In this document: piece after piece, positions 1 to 7,214 of the stretch
Numbering within the stretch: position 1 is the first letter of the stretch
Layout: the number at the start of each line of letters is the position of its first letter
Origin: a bacterium
GTDB taxonomy: Bacteria; UBP15; UBA6099; JAJRTR01
Length of the DNA stretch: 7,214 bases
NCBI GenBank assembly: GCA_024278215.1
Contig: JAJRTR010000151.1
Span: 1-7,214, forward strand
Reading direction: 5' to 3'
The notes under the pieces: model-generated
Seen by the model: only the letters and a program-made list of their open reading frames with translations
Told to the model about the DNA's origin: nothing
Database searches by the model: none
Position numbers and translations under genes: made by a program

Positions 1-583
1 AGAGCATTTCGTTCGCGGCGGGAAGCAGGAATGTTCCATTATTGAGAGTAATCGGCCTGTTGCGGAGTGCGTATCCCTTTTTACTTATAAGAGTTTTCTC
101 ATCGGACCATGCGAGACCGCCGCTGTCGGAGAATCTGTAGTGAATCCGGCAGTCGTCCCATGTATCACCGTACATAACAAGATAGAAGAACCACACACGG
201 CCACGCGGGTCGGTGTACAGAACCGGATTACCTTCCGAGAGGCCGGGCGCGTCGTTCAGGATCGCCGGCGTCGACCACTTCCCGCTTCCCGCCTGCAAGC
301 GCGACGAAAGTATCGCTACGTCCTTCGCTTTTTCATGCGCGCCCGCGAACCACGCCGCCATCAGGTCGCCCCCCGGCAGTTCCGTGATTGTCGACGCATG
401 GCATTGAGGCCGACCCGGAATCTCATCAAATATAAGTTGCTCCCGGTAAAACGGACTGTCCTGATGCTTCTCCACGGCTTCAGCCGGAGCGTGCGGCATC
501 ATGATCAGGCATAAGATTGCTATAAAGATACGTATTGGGATTTGTACTTTTATGTTCACCAATGTGCTGTTTGTCATTCTCAT
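1..583 (-). CDS. Secreted sialidase-like (BNR/Asp-box) protein, 5' part only
   Basis: The - strand is open from an ATG at 583 to the left edge: 194 codons with no stop, C-terminus outside the window. An AGGGG Shine-Dalgarno (594-590) lies 6 nt before the ATG. A second in-frame ATG is at 577. Residues 1-36 look like a signal peptide: basic/polar start to R18, hydrophobic stretch about 19-29, likely cleavage near APAEA (32-36); I see no lipobox. The mature part resembles BNR_2/exo-alpha-sialidase family proteins: CHASTITELPGGDLMAAWFAG (split over about residues 62-82), a GNPVLY...GRVWFFY strand pair, a degenerate Asp-box SDSGGLAW at 152-159 (the usual third-position Asp is Ser), and RPITLNNGTFLLPAANE near the edge. 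These are beta-propeller signatures. A role in cutting or binding exported glycans is inferred; true sialidase specificity cannot be judged, since the later catalytic residues are missing. It is transcribed away from the redox operon, so a shared function is not implied. Confidence 0.85.
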   Translation of the reverse strand, partial: MRMTNSTLVNIKVQIPIRIFIAILCLIMMPHAPAEAVEKHQDSPFYREQLIFDEIPGRPQCHASTITELPGGDLMAAWFAGAHEKAKDVAILSSRLQAGSGKWSTPAILNDAPGLSEGNPVLYTDPRGRVWFFYLVMYGDTWDDCRIHYRFSDSGGLAWSDEKTLISKKGYALRNRPITLNNGTFLLPAANEML

Positions 584-747: not shown

Positions 748-779
748 AAATGGATTTCCGCACATGCGGGAATCCATTT
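748..779. repeat. Palindromic hairpin, 14-bp stem, REP/MITE-like
   Basis: AAATGGATTTCCGC (748-761) faces GCGGGAATCCATTT (766-779) across the 4-nt loop ACAT. All 14 pairs match except one T-G wobble (757 with 770). It sits between two diverging genes, where a terminator is not expected, and neither side is followed directly by a T-run. The GGATTCCCGC / GCGGGAATCC core is similar to dispersed palindromic elements seen in many bacterial genomes; that it is dispersed here is inference, as only one copy is in the window. It could also be a protein-binding site between the two promoters. Confidence 0.7.
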
Positions 780-1100: not shown

Positions 1101-1439
1101 ATGAGCTTCTGGCGAATGCCGCTTGATGCGGAAGAACAGGGTGTTACAGTAGGCGAGGTGCATATAATTGCCTACAGATGCAAAGGTTGTCGTTACTGCA
1201 TCGAGTTTTGTCCGAATAATGTTCTTGCCGAATCTGAAGAATTCAACGAGAAAGGCTATCACCCACCTTACGCGGCAAAGGACGGCAAGTGCGTGAACTG
1301 CAATTTTTGTGAGACGATTTGTCCTGAATTCGCGATTTTCGTTACAGAAGGTAAGCCAGGTAATTTGCAGCCTGCCGACGTGTTGCATGATGTGAAACCC
1401 GGCCGGAGACTACAGAGGAAACGGCGTTATGGAGAATAG
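1101..1439 (+). CDS. korD: 2-oxoacid:ferredoxin oxidoreductase, delta (ferredoxin-like) subunit
   Basis: A 112-residue protein with two complete 4Fe-4S motifs: CKGCRYCIEFCP (C27, C30, C33, C37) and CVNCNFCETICP (C64, C67, C70, C74). This is the 2[4Fe-4S] small subunit that carries electrons from the catalytic KorAB core to soluble ferredoxin in the cytoplasm. The stretch NNVLAESEEFNEKGYHPPY between the clusters is typical of KorD/PorD-like subunits. The ATG has GAGGA 4 nt upstream. The gene is the first of the operon and overlaps korA by 11 nt, so translation is probably coupled. The last 14 residues (99-112) are strongly basic, KPGRRLQRKRRYGE; part of that run is encoded by the purine-rich sequence that also serves as the korA ribosome binding site (AGAGGA, 1414-1419), which may explain it. 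Identity as this subunit is firm; the exact 2-oxoacid is not. Confidence 0.9.
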   Translation: MSFWRMPLDAEEQGVTVGEVHIIAYRCKGCRYCIEFCPNNVLAESEEFNEKGYHPPYAAKDGKCVNCNFCETICPEFAIFVTEGKPGNLQPADVLHDVKPGRRLQRKRRYGE

Positions 1440-2586
1440 GGCGGTGCTGACGGGCACCCATTTCATCAACGGAGACATAGCGTGCGCCGAGGGCGGCCTG
1501 GCGGCGGGTTGCCGTTTTTTCGCAGGTTATCCCATAACGCCCGCGACAGAGGTGGCCGAACGTATGGCCAGGCGGCTGCCGCAGGTGGGCGGCATATACA
1601 TACAGATGGAAGACGAGCTTGCGTCTATGGCGGCGATATGCGGCGCGTCATGCTCGGGAGCGCGTCCGATGACGTCGACTTCAGGCCCGGGCTTTTCGCT
1701 TATGATGGAGAACATCGGGCTGGCGGCAATGCTGGAAACTCCCTGCGTGATAGCGAACATCCAGCGGGCAGGCCCCTCTACCGGGCTTCCCACGCTGGTC
1801 GGGCAGCAGGATGTGATGCAGGCGCGCTGGGGCTCGCATGGCGATTATGAGATTATCGCCCTGTCGCCCGAGTCGCCGCAAGAAGCTTTTGAACTTACCA
1901 TCGACGCTTTCAACCTCGCCGAGAAGTACCGTGTCCCCGTCATTCTCCTGAGCGATGAAATAATCGGCCACATGACTGAAAAGGTTGTCATACCGCACCC
2001 GGACGAGATCGAGATCGTTAAGCGGCGCAGTCCGAACATCGGACCGAAAGATTACGCTCCTTATTATCCGGACGAAGATGATATTCCGCCGATGTCCACT
2101 GCCGGAGACGGCTACCATATTCACGCAACCGGGCTGACGCATAACGAACACGGCTATCCCGATATTTCCGCCGATGCGCAGGAGCGGCTGGTGCAGAGGC
2201 TGGTACGTAAGATAAGGAGCAATGCCGACAGAATAGTACGCACCGAAAACTTATATCTGGATGACGCGGAAGTCGTGATGGTGTCCTACGGCTGCTCGGG
2301 GCGTACAACCCGAGAAGTTGTAGAAACCGCAAGGGCGGACGGAATGAAGGTCGGCATGGTGCGCCTGATTACAGTGTGGCCGTTCGCGGAACAACTGATA
2401 CGGGAACTTGCGGAGCAGAGCAGCGTAGGTGCTTTTGTCGTGGTCGAGATAAATAGCGGACAGATAGCTCTCGAGGTGGAACGCTGCGCCGGCGGTAATG
2501 CCGAAACTGTGCTCGCGGGACTCATGGGTGGCCGCATGTTTGCTCCGGATGAATTATACAAAGTGGTGAAGGAGGCCGTTTTGTGA
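1429..2586 (+). CDS. korA: 2-oxoacid (probably 2-oxoglutarate):ferredoxin oxidoreductase, alpha subunit
   Basis: 385 residues, full length for a KorA. It provides the pyrimidine-side thiamine diphosphate domain of the enzyme that converts 2-oxoacid, CoA and oxidised ferredoxin into acyl-CoA, CO2 and reduced ferredoxin. Visible motifs: GYPITPATEVAE (33-44), the QMEDELASMAA segment with the acidic residues expected near the cofactor (59-69), TSTSGPGFSLM (82-92), QRAGPSTGLPT (112-122) and WGSHGD soon after. The C-terminal half carries the domain II pattern (VSYGCSGRTTREV, then MVRLITVWPF). The EDE and QRxGPSTGLPT forms fit KorA of four-subunit KorDABC enzymes better than pyruvate enzymes, but substrate choice (2-oxoglutarate versus branched-chain 2-oxoacids) is inferred from overall resemblance. 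The ATG at 1429 has AGAGGA 9 nt upstream and lies inside korD. Its TGA stop overlaps the korB start by 4 nt. Confidence 0.88.
   Translation: MENRAVLTGTHFINGDIACAEGGLAAGCRFFAGYPITPATEVAERMARRLPQVGGIYIQMEDELASMAAICGASCSGARPMTSTSGPGFSLMMENIGLAAMLETPCVIANIQRAGPSTGLPTLVGQQDVMQARWGSHGDYEIIALSPESPQEAFELTIDAFNLAEKYRVPVILLSDEIIGHMTEKVVIPHPDEIEIVKRRSPNIGPKDYAPYYPDEDDIPPMSTAGDGYHIHATGLTHNEHGYPDISADAQERLVQRLVRKIRSNADRIVRTENLYLDDAEVVMVSYGCSGRTTREVVETARADGMKVGMVRLITVWPFAEQLIRELAEQSSVGAFVVVEINSGQIALEVERCAGGNAETVLAGLMGGRMFAPDELYKVVKEAVL
2569..2575 (+). promoter_or_regulatory. Ribosome binding site that fixes the korB GTG start
   Basis: AAGGAGG lies 7 nt before GTG 2583, a near-perfect Shine-Dalgarno inside the end of korA. 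It supports the GTG start and the 4-nt GTGA overlap rather than a later ATG. Confidence 0.85.
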
Positions 2587-3503
2587 AAAATATATTTATC
2601 GACGCACCTCCATTAACTCCGGATCAGGCAAAACTCGGCAGAAGCAAAGGCTATGGCGACCATCCCCTGGACAAGTACCTTAAGGAAGGCAGAATCCCGC
2701 ATATATGGTGTTCCGGCTGCGGGATCGGCATAGTGCTCACGGCATTTATCAAGGCGCTGGAAAAAAGCGGGGCCGACCCCGATAAAACCGTTGTGGTGTC
2801 CGGCATCGGCTGCTCGGCTCGTTCAGCCGGATACCTCAATCTCGACACATATCACACGACACACGGCCGCGCGATTCCTTTCGCCACAGGCGTGAAACTC
2901 GCCAACCCGGAATTGAACGTAGTGGTTATCAGCGGTGACGGCGACCTGTTCGCTATCGGAGGCAATCACATCATACACGCCGCTCGGCGCAATATCGACC
3001 TGTCAATTATATGCGTCAACAACTTCACTTACGGCATGACAGGAGGGCAGGGCGGCCCTACAACACCAGTCGGCGCAATATCAACAACAACGCCCTACGG
3101 CGCTTCCGAGTACCCGTTCAATCTCGTATATATGGCAGCGGCAGCCGGGGCGTCCTATGTAGCGCGCTGGACGGTGCTTCATACACGCGAGCTTCGCGAT
3201 GCGATGATCGACTCTATGAGCAAACCCGGTTTCAGCTTTATCGAAGCGATTTCCCCATGTCCGACAGCACATGCGCGGCGCAATAAACTCGGCTCCGGAC
3301 TCGATATCATGCGTTATTATAAAGAAAAGTCATACCTTGCCGACGAACTCGACCGTGACGAAACGGCACTTGGGCTGGCGGATAAAATCGCCATCGGCAA
3401 ATTTGTCGATGTCGAAAAGCCTACATACCTCGACATGTACAACAGCCATGTTGCTGACCGTGCTGCGCAAGCTGCGAAAAAGAAAAAAAAGAAAAAGAAA
3501 TAA
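2583..3503 (+). CDS. korB: 2-oxoacid (probably 2-oxoglutarate):ferredoxin oxidoreductase, beta subunit
   Basis: 306 residues. This subunit binds the diphosphate end of thiamine diphosphate with Mg2+ and the proximal 4Fe-4S cluster. Four cysteines match the family pattern: WCSGCG (C43, C46), GIGCS (C77) and SPCPT (C226). THGRAIPFATG, SGDGDLFAIGGNH and NNFTYGMTGGQ form the cofactor pocket, and GGPTTP follows. It starts at GTG 2583, overlapping korA. The odd part is the C-terminus: eight consecutive lysines (299-306) after AQAA, from a 24-nt tract (3477-3500) of 21 A and 3 G. Such a tail is not part of the conserved fold. korC is in the same reading frame 18 nt downstream with no further stop codon between, so read-through of the TAA would yield a KorB-KorC fusion; I see no specific signal for that. 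The upstream Shine-Dalgarno makes the start secure. Confidence 0.88.
   Translation: MKNIFIDAPPLTPDQAKLGRSKGYGDHPLDKYLKEGRIPHIWCSGCGIGIVLTAFIKALEKSGADPDKTVVVSGIGCSARSAGYLNLDTYHTTHGRAIPFATGVKLANPELNVVVISGDGDLFAIGGNHIIHAARRNIDLSIICVNNFTYGMTGGQGGPTTPVGAISTTTPYGASEYPFNLVYMAAAAGASYVARWTVLHTRELRDAMIDSMSKPGFSFIEAISPCPTAHARRNKLGSGLDIMRYYKEKSYLADELDRDETALGLADKIAIGKFVDVEKPTYLDMYNSHVADRAAQAAKKKKKKKK
3477..3500 (+). repeat. A-rich poly-lysine tract at the 3' end of korB
   Basis: Eight lysine codons in a row (AAA or AAG). The run includes eight consecutive A (3483-3490) followed by G, so it contains the heptamer A AAA AAG in the zero frame (3485-3491), the type of slippery site used by bacterial dnaX. A -1 shift there would end at TGA 3527-3529, just past the korC ATG. 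No stimulatory Shine-Dalgarno or hairpin is evident. It may also be a site of replication slippage. Confidence 0.6.
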
Positions 3504-3521
3504 CAATTAAGAGCAACAAAT

Positions 3522-4100
3522 ATGAGTGAAGAAGCTACTTTAAAAACCGGCAGGAAGCAAATAAGGCTCGCGGGGTTCGGCGGACAGGGTATCGTGCTGT
3601 CCGGGATGATTCTCGGCAAAGCTATAACGATTTTCGAGGACGGCAACGCGGTCATGACGCAGAGCTACGGGCCGGAGGCACGCGGTGGCGCGTGCAGCGC
3701 GGATGTTGTGATATCCGACGAAAGGATAAATTACCCGCGTGTCACCGTGCCCGATGTTCTGGTCGTAATGGCAGAGGAAGCGGCGCGCACTTATGGCCCG
3801 AATACCGCGGACGATGCGATTGTCCTCGTCAATGAGCGTCTTGTAAAAACGATTCCCGACAAACCCGGCCTTACCGTCTATACGATACCGGCCACAGACA
3901 TAGCGGAAGAGCTGGGGCGCGCCATCGTCGCCAATATAGTAATGCTCGGGTTCATCACAGCCACCGCCGATGTCGTCAGCTACGAAGCTATGAAGCAGGC
4001 GATACTCGACAGCATTCCGGCGGGCACCGAGGAACTGAATCTGGCGGCCTTCCAGGCTGGTTTCGACCACGGCGCTATCGAGTTGATGAACGAAGAGTGA
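3522..4100 (+). CDS. korC: 2-oxoacid:ferredoxin oxidoreductase, gamma subunit
   Basis: 192 residues, normal for a gamma subunit (POR gamma family). It begins with a short polar leader and then IRLAGFGGQGIVLSG (14-28), the glycine-rich motif typical of the family, followed by TQSYGPEARGGACSADVVIS and a stretch (TVPDVLVVMAEEAARTYG) also typical. It completes the four-subunit KorDABC enzyme and helps bind the CoA substrate, from family knowledge. The ATG at 3522 has only a weak upstream site (AAGAG, 3509-3513), so its translation may depend on ribosomes leaving korB 18 nt upstream. The stop TGA at 4098-4100 is 7 nt before the hdrA GTG. No unusual residues seen. Confidence 0.88.
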   Translation: MSEEATLKTGRKQIRLAGFGGQGIVLSGMILGKAITIFEDGNAVMTQSYGPEARGGACSADVVISDERINYPRVTVPDVLVVMAEEAARTYGPNTADDAIVLVNERLVKTIPDKPGLTVYTIPATDIAEELGRAIVANIVMLGFITATADVVSYEAMKQAILDSIPAGTEELNLAAFQAGFDHGAIELMNEE

Positions 4101-4107
4101 TGACAGG

Positions 4108-6585
4108 GTGAATGAGAAATTGAAAAAAACAGAAGAAAACGACAACGCAGCCGCCGTAAATGAAGAGCCGCGAATCGGTGTTTATGTATGCCATTGCGGT
4201 TTGAATATCGGCGGTTCGGTGGATTGCGAGGCGGTCGCGCTGAGCGCGGCAAAACTGGATAATGTGGTTATAGCCGACCACCAGCTTTACACTTGTTCCG
4301 AGCCCGGCCAGGAACGAATCAAACAGGATATCGCCGAGCATGGCCTGAACAGAATAGTGGTAGCCGCGTGTTCGCCGCGAATGCACGAGCCGACGTTCAG
4401 ATCATGTGTGCAGGACGCCGGGCTGAACAAATATATGCTCGAGATGGCCAACATCCGCGAACACTGTTCATGGGTGCATCTTCACGATAAGGCGGCAGGC
4501 ACGGAGAAGTCGAAAGACCTTGTAAGGATGGCGGTCGCGCGTGCGCGCTACCTCGAACCGCAGGAAGAGATCGATGTGCCCGTAATCAAGAAGGCGCTGG
4601 TCATCGGCGGCGGTGTGGCGGGCATACAGGCTGCGCTCGATCTCGCGGATTCGGGCTACGAGGTGGTTCTGGTCGAGAAAGAGCCCAGTATCGGCGGTCG
4701 CATGGCCCAGATAGACAAGACATTCCCTACTATGGACTGCTCGATCTGCATTCTCGCGCCGAAGATGGCAGAGGTCGGCAGACACCCGAATATCACTCTC
4801 ATGTCGCTTACCGAGGTTACTAATATCGGCGGTTATATCGGGAATTTCTCGGTGACTCTCAGGCATAAAGCGAAATATGTGAATGAAGATTGCAGCGCGT
4901 GTTCGGATTGCATGAAAGCGTGTCCGCAACATGCGCCTAACGAGTTCGACGTGGGGCTGGCGACAAGAAAGGCAATATATATCCCGTTCGCGCAGGCGGT
5001 GCCGTCTCAATATGTGATAGACATGGACCTGTGCCTTAATAAAAATGGAGTGCGGGTATGTGAAAAATGTGTCGAAGCCTGTGAAAGAAAGTGTATAAAT
5101 TTCGAAGACCACGACCGGGAAGAAACATTCGATGTCGGCACGATTATCGTCTGCACCGGTGTCGATGTGTTCGATGCGGCGCAAATACCGCAGTACCAGT
5201 ATAAAAAAGCGCCGAATGTCATCACCAGCCTCGAGTTCGAGAGGCTCATAAACGCGGGCGGGCCGACTCACGGCCAGCTGATACGTCCTTCGGACCACAG
5301 GATACCGAAATCTGTCGCTTTTGTGCAGTGTGTCGGTTCGAGGTCCAGAAAAACGAATCCCTATTGCAGCAATGTCTGCTGCATGAACACGATAAAAGAC
5401 GCTCTGCTTATAAAAGAGCACTGGCCGGAAACGGAAATAAAAGTTTTTTACATAGACATAAGAGCGTTCGGCAAAGGATTCGAGGACCTTTTTCAACGCT
5501 CGAAGATGGAAGGTGTTCAGTTTATACAGGGGCTGCCCGGAGAGATAGTGCAGCGCAAAAACGGCAACCTGCGTATGATCGGCGAGTTGATGATGCTGCA
5601 CGAACTGTACGACATAGAAGTCGAGATGGTGATCCTGTCTGTCGGCCTGAAACCGAGCATCGGAAGCGATGTGGTGCGCAAATACCTGACCCTGTCGCGC
5701 ACGAGCGGCGGTTTTTTCATGGTAGCTCATCCAAAGTTGAGGCCGGTAGACACGGCAACACGCGGCGTATTCCTCGCTGGATGCTCCGAGGGTCCGAAAG
5801 ATATAAAGGAAGCTGTAACGCAGGCGAGCGCAGCGGCGGCGAGGGCGAATATAATCATGCACCGGGGCATGGTGACAGTCGAGGCGATCACGGCGCGCGT
5901 GGATGAGAGCATGTGCACCGGCTGCGGGCTCTGCGCGAAAGTATGCCCCTACCAGGCGATACAGATAAACGACAGGAAGAAGGCTGTCGTCATCGACGCC
6001 GCATGCAGCGGATGCGGCACATGCAGTGCGGAATGTAAATTCGACGCTATTACCATGCGCCATTTCACAGACAGGCAGATTCTGGCGCAGATCGACGCGT
6101 TTACGGAATTCGAGCCGGAGAAAAAAATACTCGCATTCTGCTGCAACTGGTGCTCGTATGCAGGGGCGGACTTCGCGGGCATCAGCCGGATGCAGTATGC
6201 ACCGCAGGTGCGCATAATACGAACAATGTGCTCGGGCAGAGTCGCACAGAACTTCATCGAACACGCATTCGCGCGCGGGGTCGGCGTCGTGTTGCTTTCC
6301 GGCTGCCATATCGGTGATTGCCACTACATCGACGCTAATACATTCGCGGAGAAACGGTATAAAAGAATGCGCAGGCTGATGAAGCAGAACGGGCTGGATA
6401 ATAACAGGATGCAGCTCGTGTGGGTGAGCGCGGCGGAAGGACAGAAGTTCCAGGAAAAGATCAACAGCCTGGTGGAAAAGCTGAAGACGGTCACTCCTGA
6501 AGAAATTAAAAACAGTATGAGGTTTTTCAGCGAACGCGAAAAACAGAGAAAAGAGAAAAAACAGAAAACGCGCGCCGGAAAATAG
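4108..6585 (+). CDS. hdrA: Heterodisulfide-reductase-like HdrA fused to an MvhD domain
   Basis: 825 residues, the FAD subunit of an Hdr-type complex. Domains in order: HdrA N-terminal domain (RIGVYVCHCGLNIGG at about 22-36, then AACSPRMHEPTF); a thioredoxin-reductase-like FAD domain with VIGGGVAG (165-172), EKEPSIGGRM and FPTMDCSIC (C211, C214); an inserted ferredoxin domain (C262, C265, C268, C272; second set C309, C318, C321, C325, C329); CVGSR and CSNVCC (C408, C420, C424, C425) with YIDIRAFGKGFEDLF; a C-terminal 2[4Fe-4S] domain (C603, C606, C609, C613; C633, C636, C639, C643); then an MvhD/FlpD domain from about 669 to 785 with CCNWC (678-682), CSGR (C708) and GCHIGDCHY (C733, C738). Such fusions are known as HdrA2-type in some methanogens and sulfate reducers. 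Start GTG 4108 is supported by GAAGAG 10 nt upstream; nearby ATGs at 4100 and 4112 hit stops at once. The last 18 residues are highly basic. HdrA is the site of flavin-based electron bifurcation in characterised relatives; activity here is inferred. Confidence 0.92.
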   Translation: MNEKLKKTEENDNAAAVNEEPRIGVYVCHCGLNIGGSVDCEAVALSAAKLDNVVIADHQLYTCSEPGQERIKQDIAEHGLNRIVVAACSPRMHEPTFRSCVQDAGLNKYMLEMANIREHCSWVHLHDKAAGTEKSKDLVRMAVARARYLEPQEEIDVPVIKKALVIGGGVAGIQAALDLADSGYEVVLVEKEPSIGGRMAQIDKTFPTMDCSICILAPKMAEVGRHPNITLMSLTEVTNIGGYIGNFSVTLRHKAKYVNEDCSACSDCMKACPQHAPNEFDVGLATRKAIYIPFAQAVPSQYVIDMDLCLNKNGVRVCEKCVEACERKCINFEDHDREETFDVGTIIVCTGVDVFDAAQIPQYQYKKAPNVITSLEFERLINAGGPTHGQLIRPSDHRIPKSVAFVQCVGSRSRKTNPYCSNVCCMNTIKDALLIKEHWPETEIKVFYIDIRAFGKGFEDLFQRSKMEGVQFIQGLPGEIVQRKNGNLRMIGELMMLHELYDIEVEMVILSVGLKPSIGSDVVRKYLTLSRTSGGFFMVAHPKLRPVDTATRGVFLAGCSEGPKDIKEAVTQASAAAARANIIMHRGMVTVEAITARVDESMCTGCGLCAKVCPYQAIQINDRKKAVVIDAACSGCGTCSAECKFDAITMRHFTDRQILAQIDAFTEFEPEKKILAFCCNWCSYAGADFAGISRMQYAPQVRIIRTMCSGRVAQNFIEHAFARGVGVVLLSGCHIGDCHYIDANTFAEKRYKRMRRLMKQNGLDNNRMQLVWVSAAEGQKFQEKINSLVEKLKTVTPEEIKNSMRFFSEREKQRKEKKQKTRAGK

Positions 6586-6600
6586 ACTTTGCATAATATG

Positions 6601-6609
6601 CTGAACTGC
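6601..6609 (+). repeat. CTGAACTGC word, copy 3, upstream of hdrC
   Basis: Exact 9-base copy in the 43-nt gap between hdrA and hdrC, beginning 28 nt before the hdrC TTG and just ahead of its Shine-Dalgarno. It directly follows the small palindrome GCATAATATGC (6591-6601), sharing one base with it. Function unknown; no terminator is seen in this gap. Confidence 0.3.
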
Positions 6610-6614
6610 GGGAC

Positions 6615-6620
6615 AGGAGA
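6615..6620 (+). promoter_or_regulatory. Ribosome binding site that fixes the hdrC TTG start
   Basis: AGGAGA ends 8 nt before TTG 6629. There is no in-frame ATG nearby that would keep the conserved N-terminus; the ATG at 6598 is in another frame and stops at 6634-6636. This makes the rare TTG start the best choice. Confidence 0.8.
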
Positions 6621-6628
6621 AATTATAG

Positions 6629-7096
6629 TTGGGTAAAGCGCTGGACCTATATGACGAGCAGGAATTCAATGCGTGCCTGCAATGCGCCATCTGCACGGGG
6701 AGTTGTCCGACCGCGCGTGTGATCGAGGGCTACAATCCGCGTGAAATCATACTCAGATACATCATGTACGGTGAGCAGGAGGAAGTGCTGAATAGCACCA
6801 TGATATGGCATTGCACGACATGTCACACCTGCCAGGAGCGCTGCCCGCACAGTATACGTATATGCGGGCTGCTCACACACATAATGAACCTCGCCGCAAA
6901 GCGCGGCAATGTGCCGGAAACTCTAAAGTCCGGAATAAAGTTGATGATAGAAACAGGCTGGTCCATTCAGGCCACACAGCGGTCAGACAGAATAAGAGAG
7001 GAACTTGGACTCAACCGTCTCGAAAAGCCGAATACTGATGAGATTCGACGGATATTCAGCGAAGCGGGACTCGATACCATACTGGAACTGGAATGA
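6629..7096 (+). CDS. hdrC: Heterodisulfide-reductase-like subunit HdrC
   Basis: 155 residues with two classical 4Fe-4S motifs, CLQCAICTGSCP (C16, C19, C22, C26) and CTTCHTCQERCP (C62, C65, C68, C72). The segment between them (GYNPREIILRYIMYG) and TTCHTCQERCPHSI are typical of HdrC, which passes electrons from HdrA to HdrB in the cytoplasm. No membrane helices are seen, so it is the soluble HdrC type and not the HdrE/DsrM-linked membrane form. The C-terminal part is helical and charged. The length is slightly shorter than the roughly 185 residues of methanogen HdrC. It starts at TTG with a good Shine-Dalgarno and its stop overlaps hdrB by 4 nt (ATGA), implying coupled translation of the HdrBC pair. 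Confidence 0.9.
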   Translation: MGKALDLYDEQEFNACLQCAICTGSCPTARVIEGYNPREIILRYIMYGEQEEVLNSTMIWHCTTCHTCQERCPHSIRICGLLTHIMNLAAKRGNVPETLKSGIKLMIETGWSIQATQRSDRIREELGLNRLEKPNTDEIRRIFSEAGLDTILELE

Positions 7097-7214
7097 AAAT
7101 ATCGCTTTTTACAGGTTGCGTTATTCCGATAAAGTATCCCGGCATTGAAGTTGCCATGCGACACCTTGCCGAAATACTCGATATCGAGATGGTGGATGTT
7201 AACTTCGGCTGTTG
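7093..7214 (+). CDS. hdrB: Heterodisulfide-reductase-like subunit HdrB, 5' end only
   Basis: Only 40 codons and 2 bases are in the window. The N-terminus, MKISLFTGCVIPIKYPGIE followed by VAMRHLAEILDIEMVDVNFGC, is the characteristic first CCG-domain segment of HdrB: TGCVI with C9, YPGIE, and FGC- with C40 and a following codon beginning TG (Cys fits). HdrB carries the two non-cubane iron-sulfur clusters at which disulfide substrates are reduced in characterised Hdr enzymes. The real substrate here (CoM-S-S-CoB is unlikely in a bacterium without evidence of methanogenesis) is unknown. The ATG overlaps the hdrC TGA as ATGA; a GGAACTGGA stretch upstream is only a weak ribosome binding site, consistent with coupling. 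Confidence 0.88.
   Translation, partial: MKISLFTGCVIPIKYPGIEVAMRHLAEILDIEMVDVNFGC

What the first reader, a model, noticed from the sequence alone, without database searches (positions are those of the whole stretch)
1101..7214. kor operon continuous with an HdrA-MvhD/HdrC/HdrB complex and no hydrogenase
Seven tightly packed genes join a complete four-subunit 2-oxoacid:ferredoxin oxidoreductase to a soluble Hdr-type complex. Seen directly: gene order, overlaps and motifs. Known: HdrA with fused MvhD occurs in electron-bifurcating complexes that pair with hydrogenase, formate dehydrogenase or F420-dependent partners. Inferred: here the low-potential ferredoxin may be supplied or consumed by Kor itself, making a 2-oxoacid-linked confurcating or bifurcating module. 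The MvhD port then needs a partner that is absent from the window, or electrons enter it directly from KorD or a free ferredoxin.
Basis: partly seen in the sequence, partly recalled or inferred. Interest (0 to 1): 0.6.

Follow-up and report, generated by a model that had tools for sequence, protein, structure and literature searches.

The report
2-oxoacid enzyme joined to Hdr complex
This operon joins an enzyme that breaks down 2-oxoacids (most likely 2-oxoglutarate) to an electron-sharing Hdr complex that elsewhere works with a hydrogenase or formate dehydrogenase, and the same pairing recurs in many bacterial and archaeal phyla, so Kor looks like a standing but little-noticed electron partner of Hdr.

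Summary
Window 1101-7214 carries korDABC, hdrA (with fused MvhD), hdrC and the first 40 codons of hdrB; junctions are overlaps or gaps of at most 43 bp. The contig ends there; contig C72 carries the rest of hdrB, and a same-order relative shows the seven-gene operon standing alone. The genome (95% complete) has no detectable NiFe or FeFe hydrogenase, FrhB/FdhB or F420 CofD; it looks like a sulfate reducer with intact DsrC. The pairing is no chance neighbourhood: about 50 loci under 12 phylum labels in both domains, with KorA and HdrA distances correlated (Mantel r 0.73). Among 80 HdrA loci, kor and the usual partners never co-occurred. Hdr-linked KorD carries an N-terminal WRxPLD arm (38 of 46 scorable; 3 of 42 unlinked by rule, all three within 5 kb of hdrA), a candidate docking peptide. 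The end module varies: HdrB, an HdrC-HdrB-type fusion, or HdrC fused to an NAD(P)H-type flavoprotein. Best reading: a Kor-Hdr complex passing 2-oxoglutarate electrons through HdrA to a disulfide (DsrC here); bifurcation is possible but untested. Precedent: kor interspersed with flx-hdr in tubeworm symbionts; this Flx-free form is a new variant.

The parts
1101..1439 (+). korD: delta subunit, two 4Fe-4S clusters (CKGCRYCIEFCP, CVNCNFCETICP)
   Evidence: best NCBIfam OGOR_delta, below cut-off; closest solved OGOR homologue is H. pylori OorD 8ys5_D
1110..1127 (+). WRMPLD N-terminal arm of KorD, candidate docking peptide for HdrA
   Evidence: in 38 of 46 scorable hdr-linked KorD; in 3 of 42 unlinked by rule, all three with hdrA within 5 kb; coil ahead of the ferredoxin fold, block mean pLDDT 78-89
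1429..2586 (+). korA: alpha subunit
   Evidence: NF006412 549.5 bits, cut-off 411; PDB 1yd7, 8ys5_A, 6n2n
2583..3503 (+). korB: beta subunit (ThDP-binding), ending in eight lysines
   Evidence: PF02775; best PDB match 8ys5_C, 2-oxoglutarate ferredoxin oxidoreductase beta
3522..4100 (+). korC: gamma subunit
   Evidence: PF01558; NF006323 221 bits, just under its cut-off of 235
4108..6585 (+). hdrA of the HdrA2 type, GTG start
   Evidence: NF040770 HdrA2 1232.7 bits over cut-off 1100; 5odc_A 783 bits over residues 19-664, N-terminal Cys and DCSICILAPKM kept
6127..6489 (+). fused MvhD/FlpD domain at the C-terminus of HdrA
   Evidence: PF02662 E 2.4e-45, residues 674-794; 5odc_D
6629..7096 (+). 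hdrC, TTG start, two 4Fe-4S motifs
   Evidence: TIGR03290 110 bits, below cut-off 160
7093..7214 (+). hdrB, first 40 codons; the contig ends here, remainder on contig C72
   Evidence: TIGR03288 weak on the stub; C72:1-867 is a 288-aa CCG protein matching 5odc_B

Best explanation
The operon encodes one functional unit, a Kor-Hdr complex. KorABC oxidises a 2-oxoacid, most likely 2-oxoglutarate, to its acyl-CoA and CO2. The low-potential electrons leave through KorD, which docks on the HdrA-MvhD flavoprotein, probably by its WRxPLD arm, in the place where other Hdr complexes hold a hydrogenase or formate dehydrogenase. HdrA passes them through FAD and its clusters to HdrC and then to HdrB, which reduces a disulfide; in this sulfate reducer DsrC is the likeliest acceptor. 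Shown here: the genes, their order, its wide conservation, correlated divergence of KorA and HdrA, absence of other known partners, and the motif-linkage association. Inferred: physical docking, the direction, the acceptor, the substrate. Whether HdrA also bifurcates to a free ferredoxin is open. I put functional coupling of Kor and Hdr at about 0.8; the confidence given is for the whole statement.
For: Order conserved in about 50 loci under 12 phylum labels. KorA/HdrA distance correlation r 0.73, p 0.001, 35 loci. Kor and hydrogenase/FrhB/FdhA partners mutually exclusive around HdrA: 29, 19, both 0 of 80, p 6e-5. WRxPLD in 38 of 46 scorable linked KorD and 3 of 42 unlinked by rule, the three having hdrA within 5 kb; in independent pairs on the KorA tree the motif changes with linkage in about 3 of 4 and never against it. 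No hydrogenase or FrhB in the genome. DsrC with both C-terminal cysteines, beside dsrAB-like genes. HdrA and HdrB close to solved HdrABC. Kor closest to OorDABC/OGOR among solved structures. An unlinked relative of this Kor clade sits in a TCA-type operon by sequence resemblance (L182).
Against: No biochemical or co-purification data exist here. Gene adjacency does not prove a complex. Linked KorA form mostly one clade, so motif and linkage share ancestry; the pair test has too few changes to reach significance (p 0.25). Eight linked KorD lack the strict motif (three archaeal H.PLD or similar, two altered, three of other Hdr types or arrangements). The C127-C72 join is not exact. DsrC as acceptor rests on this host and on FlxABCD-HdrABC precedent only; many other carriers end in a different module.
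Confidence: 0.5

Rival explanations
1. Kor and an HdrA2B2C2-type enzyme are co-expressed but separate: Kor reduces soluble ferredoxin, and HdrA2B2C2 oxidises that ferredoxin to reduce a disulfide. No direct contact.
For: HdrA2B2C2 of M. acetivorans does ferredoxin-dependent disulfide reduction without any partner (PMC5296606); this HdrA is over the HdrA2 cut-off.
Against: Does not explain the KorD arm that goes with hdrA linkage, nor why Kor and other partners exclude each other around hdrA.
Confidence: 0.25
2. The unit runs in reverse: HdrA bifurcates electrons from a mid-potential donor acting in trans (for example NADH through a NuoF-like protein at the MvhD domain) to a disulfide and to Kor, which carboxylates succinyl-CoA, as proposed for rTCA-cycle tubeworm symbionts.
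For: Published proposal for flx-hdr-kor clusters (PMC6315080, PMC11636981); four NuoF-family matches exist in this genome.
Against: No flx or NuoF-like gene seen in or next to the operon, in C72 or in the relative G001; rTCA key genes were not tested; an unlinked relative sits in a TCA-type operon.
Confidence: 0.15
3. Chance neighbourhood of two common anaerobic redox operons.
For: Both modules are common in anaerobes, and flanking genes differ between genomes.
Against: Repeated contiguity across 12 phylum labels, correlated distances and a shared order.
Confidence: 0.03

Closest known systems
HdrA2B2C2 of Methanosarcina acetivorans (PMC5296606)
   Same: HdrA with fused MvhD, plus HdrB and HdrC; no hydrogenase partner; NCBIfam HdrA2 cut-off passed
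   Different: joined here to korDABC; host shows no F420 CofD over cut-off; disulfide acceptor probably not CoM-S-S-CoB
flxABCD-hdrABC with interspersed korABCD in rTCA clusters of Escarpia and Riftia symbionts and Thioflavicoccus (PMC6315080, PMC11636981)
   Same: Kor genes interspersed with Hdr genes; a direct complex was proposed there
   Different: those clusters carry FlxABCD and rTCA genes; here no Flx, MvhD is fused to HdrA, and the operon stands alone
FlxABCD-HdrABC of Desulfovibrio (as cited in PMC10553843)
   Same: Hdr complex of sulfate reducers, linked there to DsrC
   Different: NADH-linked Flx module replaced by a 2-oxoacid oxidoreductase
MvhADG-HdrABC and FdhAB-HdrABC of methanogens
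   Same: HdrA, HdrB and HdrC folds; MvhD domain
   Different: hydrogenase or formate dehydrogenase input absent from the operon; hydrogenases and FrhB/FdhB absent from the genome
OorDABC of Helicobacter pylori (8ys5)
   Same: subunit set D, A, B, C and close solved alpha/beta/delta homologues by sequence or fold
   Different: window KorD adds the WRxPLD arm and the operon continues into hdr genes

Membership tests
HdrA2B2C2-type heterodisulfide reductase | HdrA with fused MvhD over the HdrA2 family cut-off | tested here: met
   NF040770 1232.7 bits versus 1100
HdrA2B2C2-type heterodisulfide reductase | HdrB with two CCG domains and an HdrC ferredoxin subunit | tested here: met
   window has hdrC and an hdrB stub; CCG x2 on C72; join inferred; intact in the relative G001
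HdrA2B2C2-type heterodisulfide reductase | F420H2 as bifurcated donor | tested here: not met
   F420 CofD only 21.7 bits, cut-off 257; one marker in a 95% complete genome
HdrA2B2C2-type heterodisulfide reductase | CoM-S-S-CoB reduction and electron bifurcation | not testable with these tools
   needs enzyme assays
Mvh-Hdr or Fdh-Hdr bifurcating complex | hydrogenase or FrhB/FdhB-type partner | tested here: not met
   no PF00374, PF02906 or PF04432 in the genome
FlxABCD-HdrABC | flxABCD genes with hdrABC | tested here: not met
   none seen in the window, C72 or G001 locus; flx elsewhere in the genome not searched as such
2-oxoglutarate:ferredoxin oxidoreductase (OorDABC/KorDABC) | four subunits with ThDP and 4Fe-4S motifs | tested here: met
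2-oxoglutarate:ferredoxin oxidoreductase (OorDABC/KorDABC) | substrate is 2-oxoglutarate rather than another 2-oxoacid | tested here: inconclusive
   solved OGORs are among the best homologues, but NCBIfam OGOR models are below their cut-offs; neighbourhood of a relative suggests TCA

The most novel reading that the evidence does not exclude
Kor-Hdr is a distinct, old class of HdrA complex in which a 2-oxoacid oxidoreductase, docked by a dedicated KorD arm, is the built-in low-potential partner and the end module is exchangeable between disulfide and NAD(P)H chemistry, coupling 2-oxoacid oxidation to flavin-based bifurcation or confurcation in many uncultured phyla.
Probability: 0.35. Interest if true: 0.75.

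Novelty: new variant of a known kind. Interest (0 to 1): 0.55.

Why it matters
The KorD arm gives a sequence handle to predict such complexes and a direct target for mutation.

Tried and rejected
Hydrogenase or F420 partner elsewhere in the genome: not found. Natural Kor-Hdr gene fusions as Rosetta-stone evidence: only a KorB-KorC fusion turned up in L079, none joining Kor to Hdr; KorD-KorA fusions occur in L181 and probably L185. Exact overlap of the window with C72: none. Papers describing a Flx-free kor-hdr operon: none seen in ten searches of the open library; the Appel 2021 Hdr review was not read. Palindrome at 750-777 as a repeat family: single copy. The conserved W, R, P, D columns in alignment A1 are not evidence, as its rows were picked by that motif.

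Full report
Observation. The window is all of contig C127 of a 4.55-Mb, 207-contig genome (completeness 95.22%). It holds korD, korA, korB, korC, hdrA, hdrC and a 40-codon start of hdrB on the + strand with overlaps or gaps of at most 43 bp. Pfam and NCBIfam confirm each. HdrA carries a C-terminal FlpD/MvhD domain and passes the HdrA2 cut-off. Compared with the solved HdrA 5odc it keeps the N-terminal CHCG region, the FAD region, DCSICILAPKM and the ferredoxin cysteines (read from the alignment).

Continuation. Contig C72 begins at about residue 11 of hdrB and gives a 288-aa protein with two CCG stretches that matches HdrB 5odc_B. The ends of C127 and C72 share about 92 bp with several mismatches, so they are probably joined but may come from slightly different strains (inferred). 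After hdrB come a 716-aa protein without Pfam match and a response-regulator-like gene. In relative G001, same order, the complete seven-gene operon lies in a 177-kb contig between unrelated genes.

Genome setting. No NiFe hydrogenase, FeFe hydrogenase or FrhB/FdhB-family protein was found, while positive controls rang. CofD of F420 synthesis is far below its cut-off. DsrC is present with its two C-terminal cysteines. By sequence resemblance the genome has dsrA/B-like genes next to DsrC, ATP-sulfurylase/AprA-like/Qmo-like genes on C62, and DsrMKJOP-like genes next to a second korDABC on C78 (Pfam support partial); I read this as a sulfate reducer. Four NuoF-family matches exist elsewhere.

Survey from HdrA. 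One scan of 84,980 species genomes gave 80 loci. Kor genes stand beside hdrA in many of them. Clustering of neighbours found FrhB/FdhB-like, molybdopterin (FdhA-like) and NiFe hydrogenase groups. Of 80 loci, 29 have a KorA, 19 have one of these partners, none has both (Fisher p 6e-5). The loci are not independent and HdrA subtypes differ between the groups, so the p-value is only a guide; one FrhB-like group member scored below the Pfam cut-off (L068).

Survey from KorA. A search of 386 genomes supplied 80 further regions. Inspection showed L160 and L162 to be linked to divergent HdrA, while L169 and L172 are limited by contig ends or incomplete surroundings. With both sets pooled and linkage scored by rule: linked with motif 38, linked without 8, unlinked without 39, unlinked with 3, the rest unresolved. 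Those three are L165 and the two KorA copies of L183, which have hdrA 4.3 and 1.9 kb away on the same strand; for the tree I counted L165 and L183 as linked, a choice made after seeing the data. The pooled counts include the HdrA-baited loci, so only the KorA-baited set is free of that bias.

Tree. In a 111-row KorA tree (quick method) the hdr-linked rows fall, with one exception (L196), in a clade at SH-aLRT 99 that also holds some unlinked rows. Starred branches force at least four changes of linkage. In four independent pairs the motif changed the same way as linkage in 2.7 on average over pairings and never the other way; the sign test gives p 0.25 and cannot reach 0.05 with so few pairs. 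In the 35 linked loci with full HdrA, HdrA and KorA distances correlate, Mantel r 0.73, p 0.001. Shared species history alone could give part of this.

Architecture types (names by phmmer to my queries). I: kor, HdrA-MvhD, HdrC, HdrB, as in the window, G001, L011, L014, L023. II: HdrC fused to Pyr_redox_2 next to HdrA-MvhD and kor, in Bathyarchaeota and Bacteroidota labels (L013 checked by Pfam). III: larger clusters with a second HdrA-like or NfnB-like flavoprotein, free MvhD and an HdrC-CCG fusion (L034). Twelve phylum labels appear, nine bacterial and three archaeal; labels are those of the public records.

Mechanism. I take Kor as the electron source at HdrA in place of hydrogenase, KorD as the link and HdrB as the exit to a disulfide. 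The swap of HdrB for a pyridine-nucleotide flavoprotein in type II fits electrons leaving through HdrC. DsrC is the natural candidate here by analogy with FlxABCD-HdrABC (PMC10553843, citing Ferreira 2023). The AlphaFold2 model of KorD puts residues 1-14 as a coil ahead of the first strand; this neither proves nor excludes docking.

Known relatives. HdrA2B2C2 (PMC5296606) shows that an HdrA-MvhD fusion can act without a hydrogenase. Rubin-Blum 2019 (PMC6315080) noted korABCD interspersed with flxABCD-hdrABC and proposed a complex; the Riftia study (PMC11636981) places KorABCD between HdrA and HdrBC. The present form lacks Flx. I found no paper on it in ten searches of the open library, which misses most subscription journals.

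Noticed in passing
L028, L037, L042, L059 (hdrA genes): In-frame TGA exactly at the Cys of DCSI-C-ILGPKM in HdrA of kor-linked loci, suggesting selenocysteine; the window has Cys there. SECIS and Sec machinery not checked.
   Followed up: partly
window 5-583, - strand: Truncated BNR-repeat (sialidase-like) gene upstream, running off the contig.
   Followed up: no
window 750-777: Near-perfect palindrome ATGGATTTCCGCACATGCGGGAATCCAT between the BNR gene and korD; single copy in the genome at up to 3 mismatches.
   Followed up: yes
window 3477-3500: KorB ends in eight consecutive lysines encoded by an A-rich run.
   Followed up: no
G000 C78 (L106): A second korDABC without hdr genes lies next to DsrMKJOP-like genes; its KorD lacks WRxPLD.
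   Followed up: partly
G000 C152 (L103): HdrB, a 1526-aa HdrA-like protein, MvhD and a methylene-tetrahydrofolate reductase C-terminal (PF12225) gene in a row, resembling MetVF-Hdr clusters.
   Followed up: partly
L181 and L185: KorD-KorA fusion (L181; L185 similar in length) followed by KorB, KorC and an HdrA with separate MvhD, then HdrC and HdrB; no WRxPLD arm.
   Followed up: partly
L034, L037, L056, L059: Kor operons followed by a roughly 1000-aa flavoprotein with NfnB/GltD-like domains (Fer4_20 and Pyr_redox_2 shown for L034) ahead of HdrA-MvhD.
   Followed up: partly
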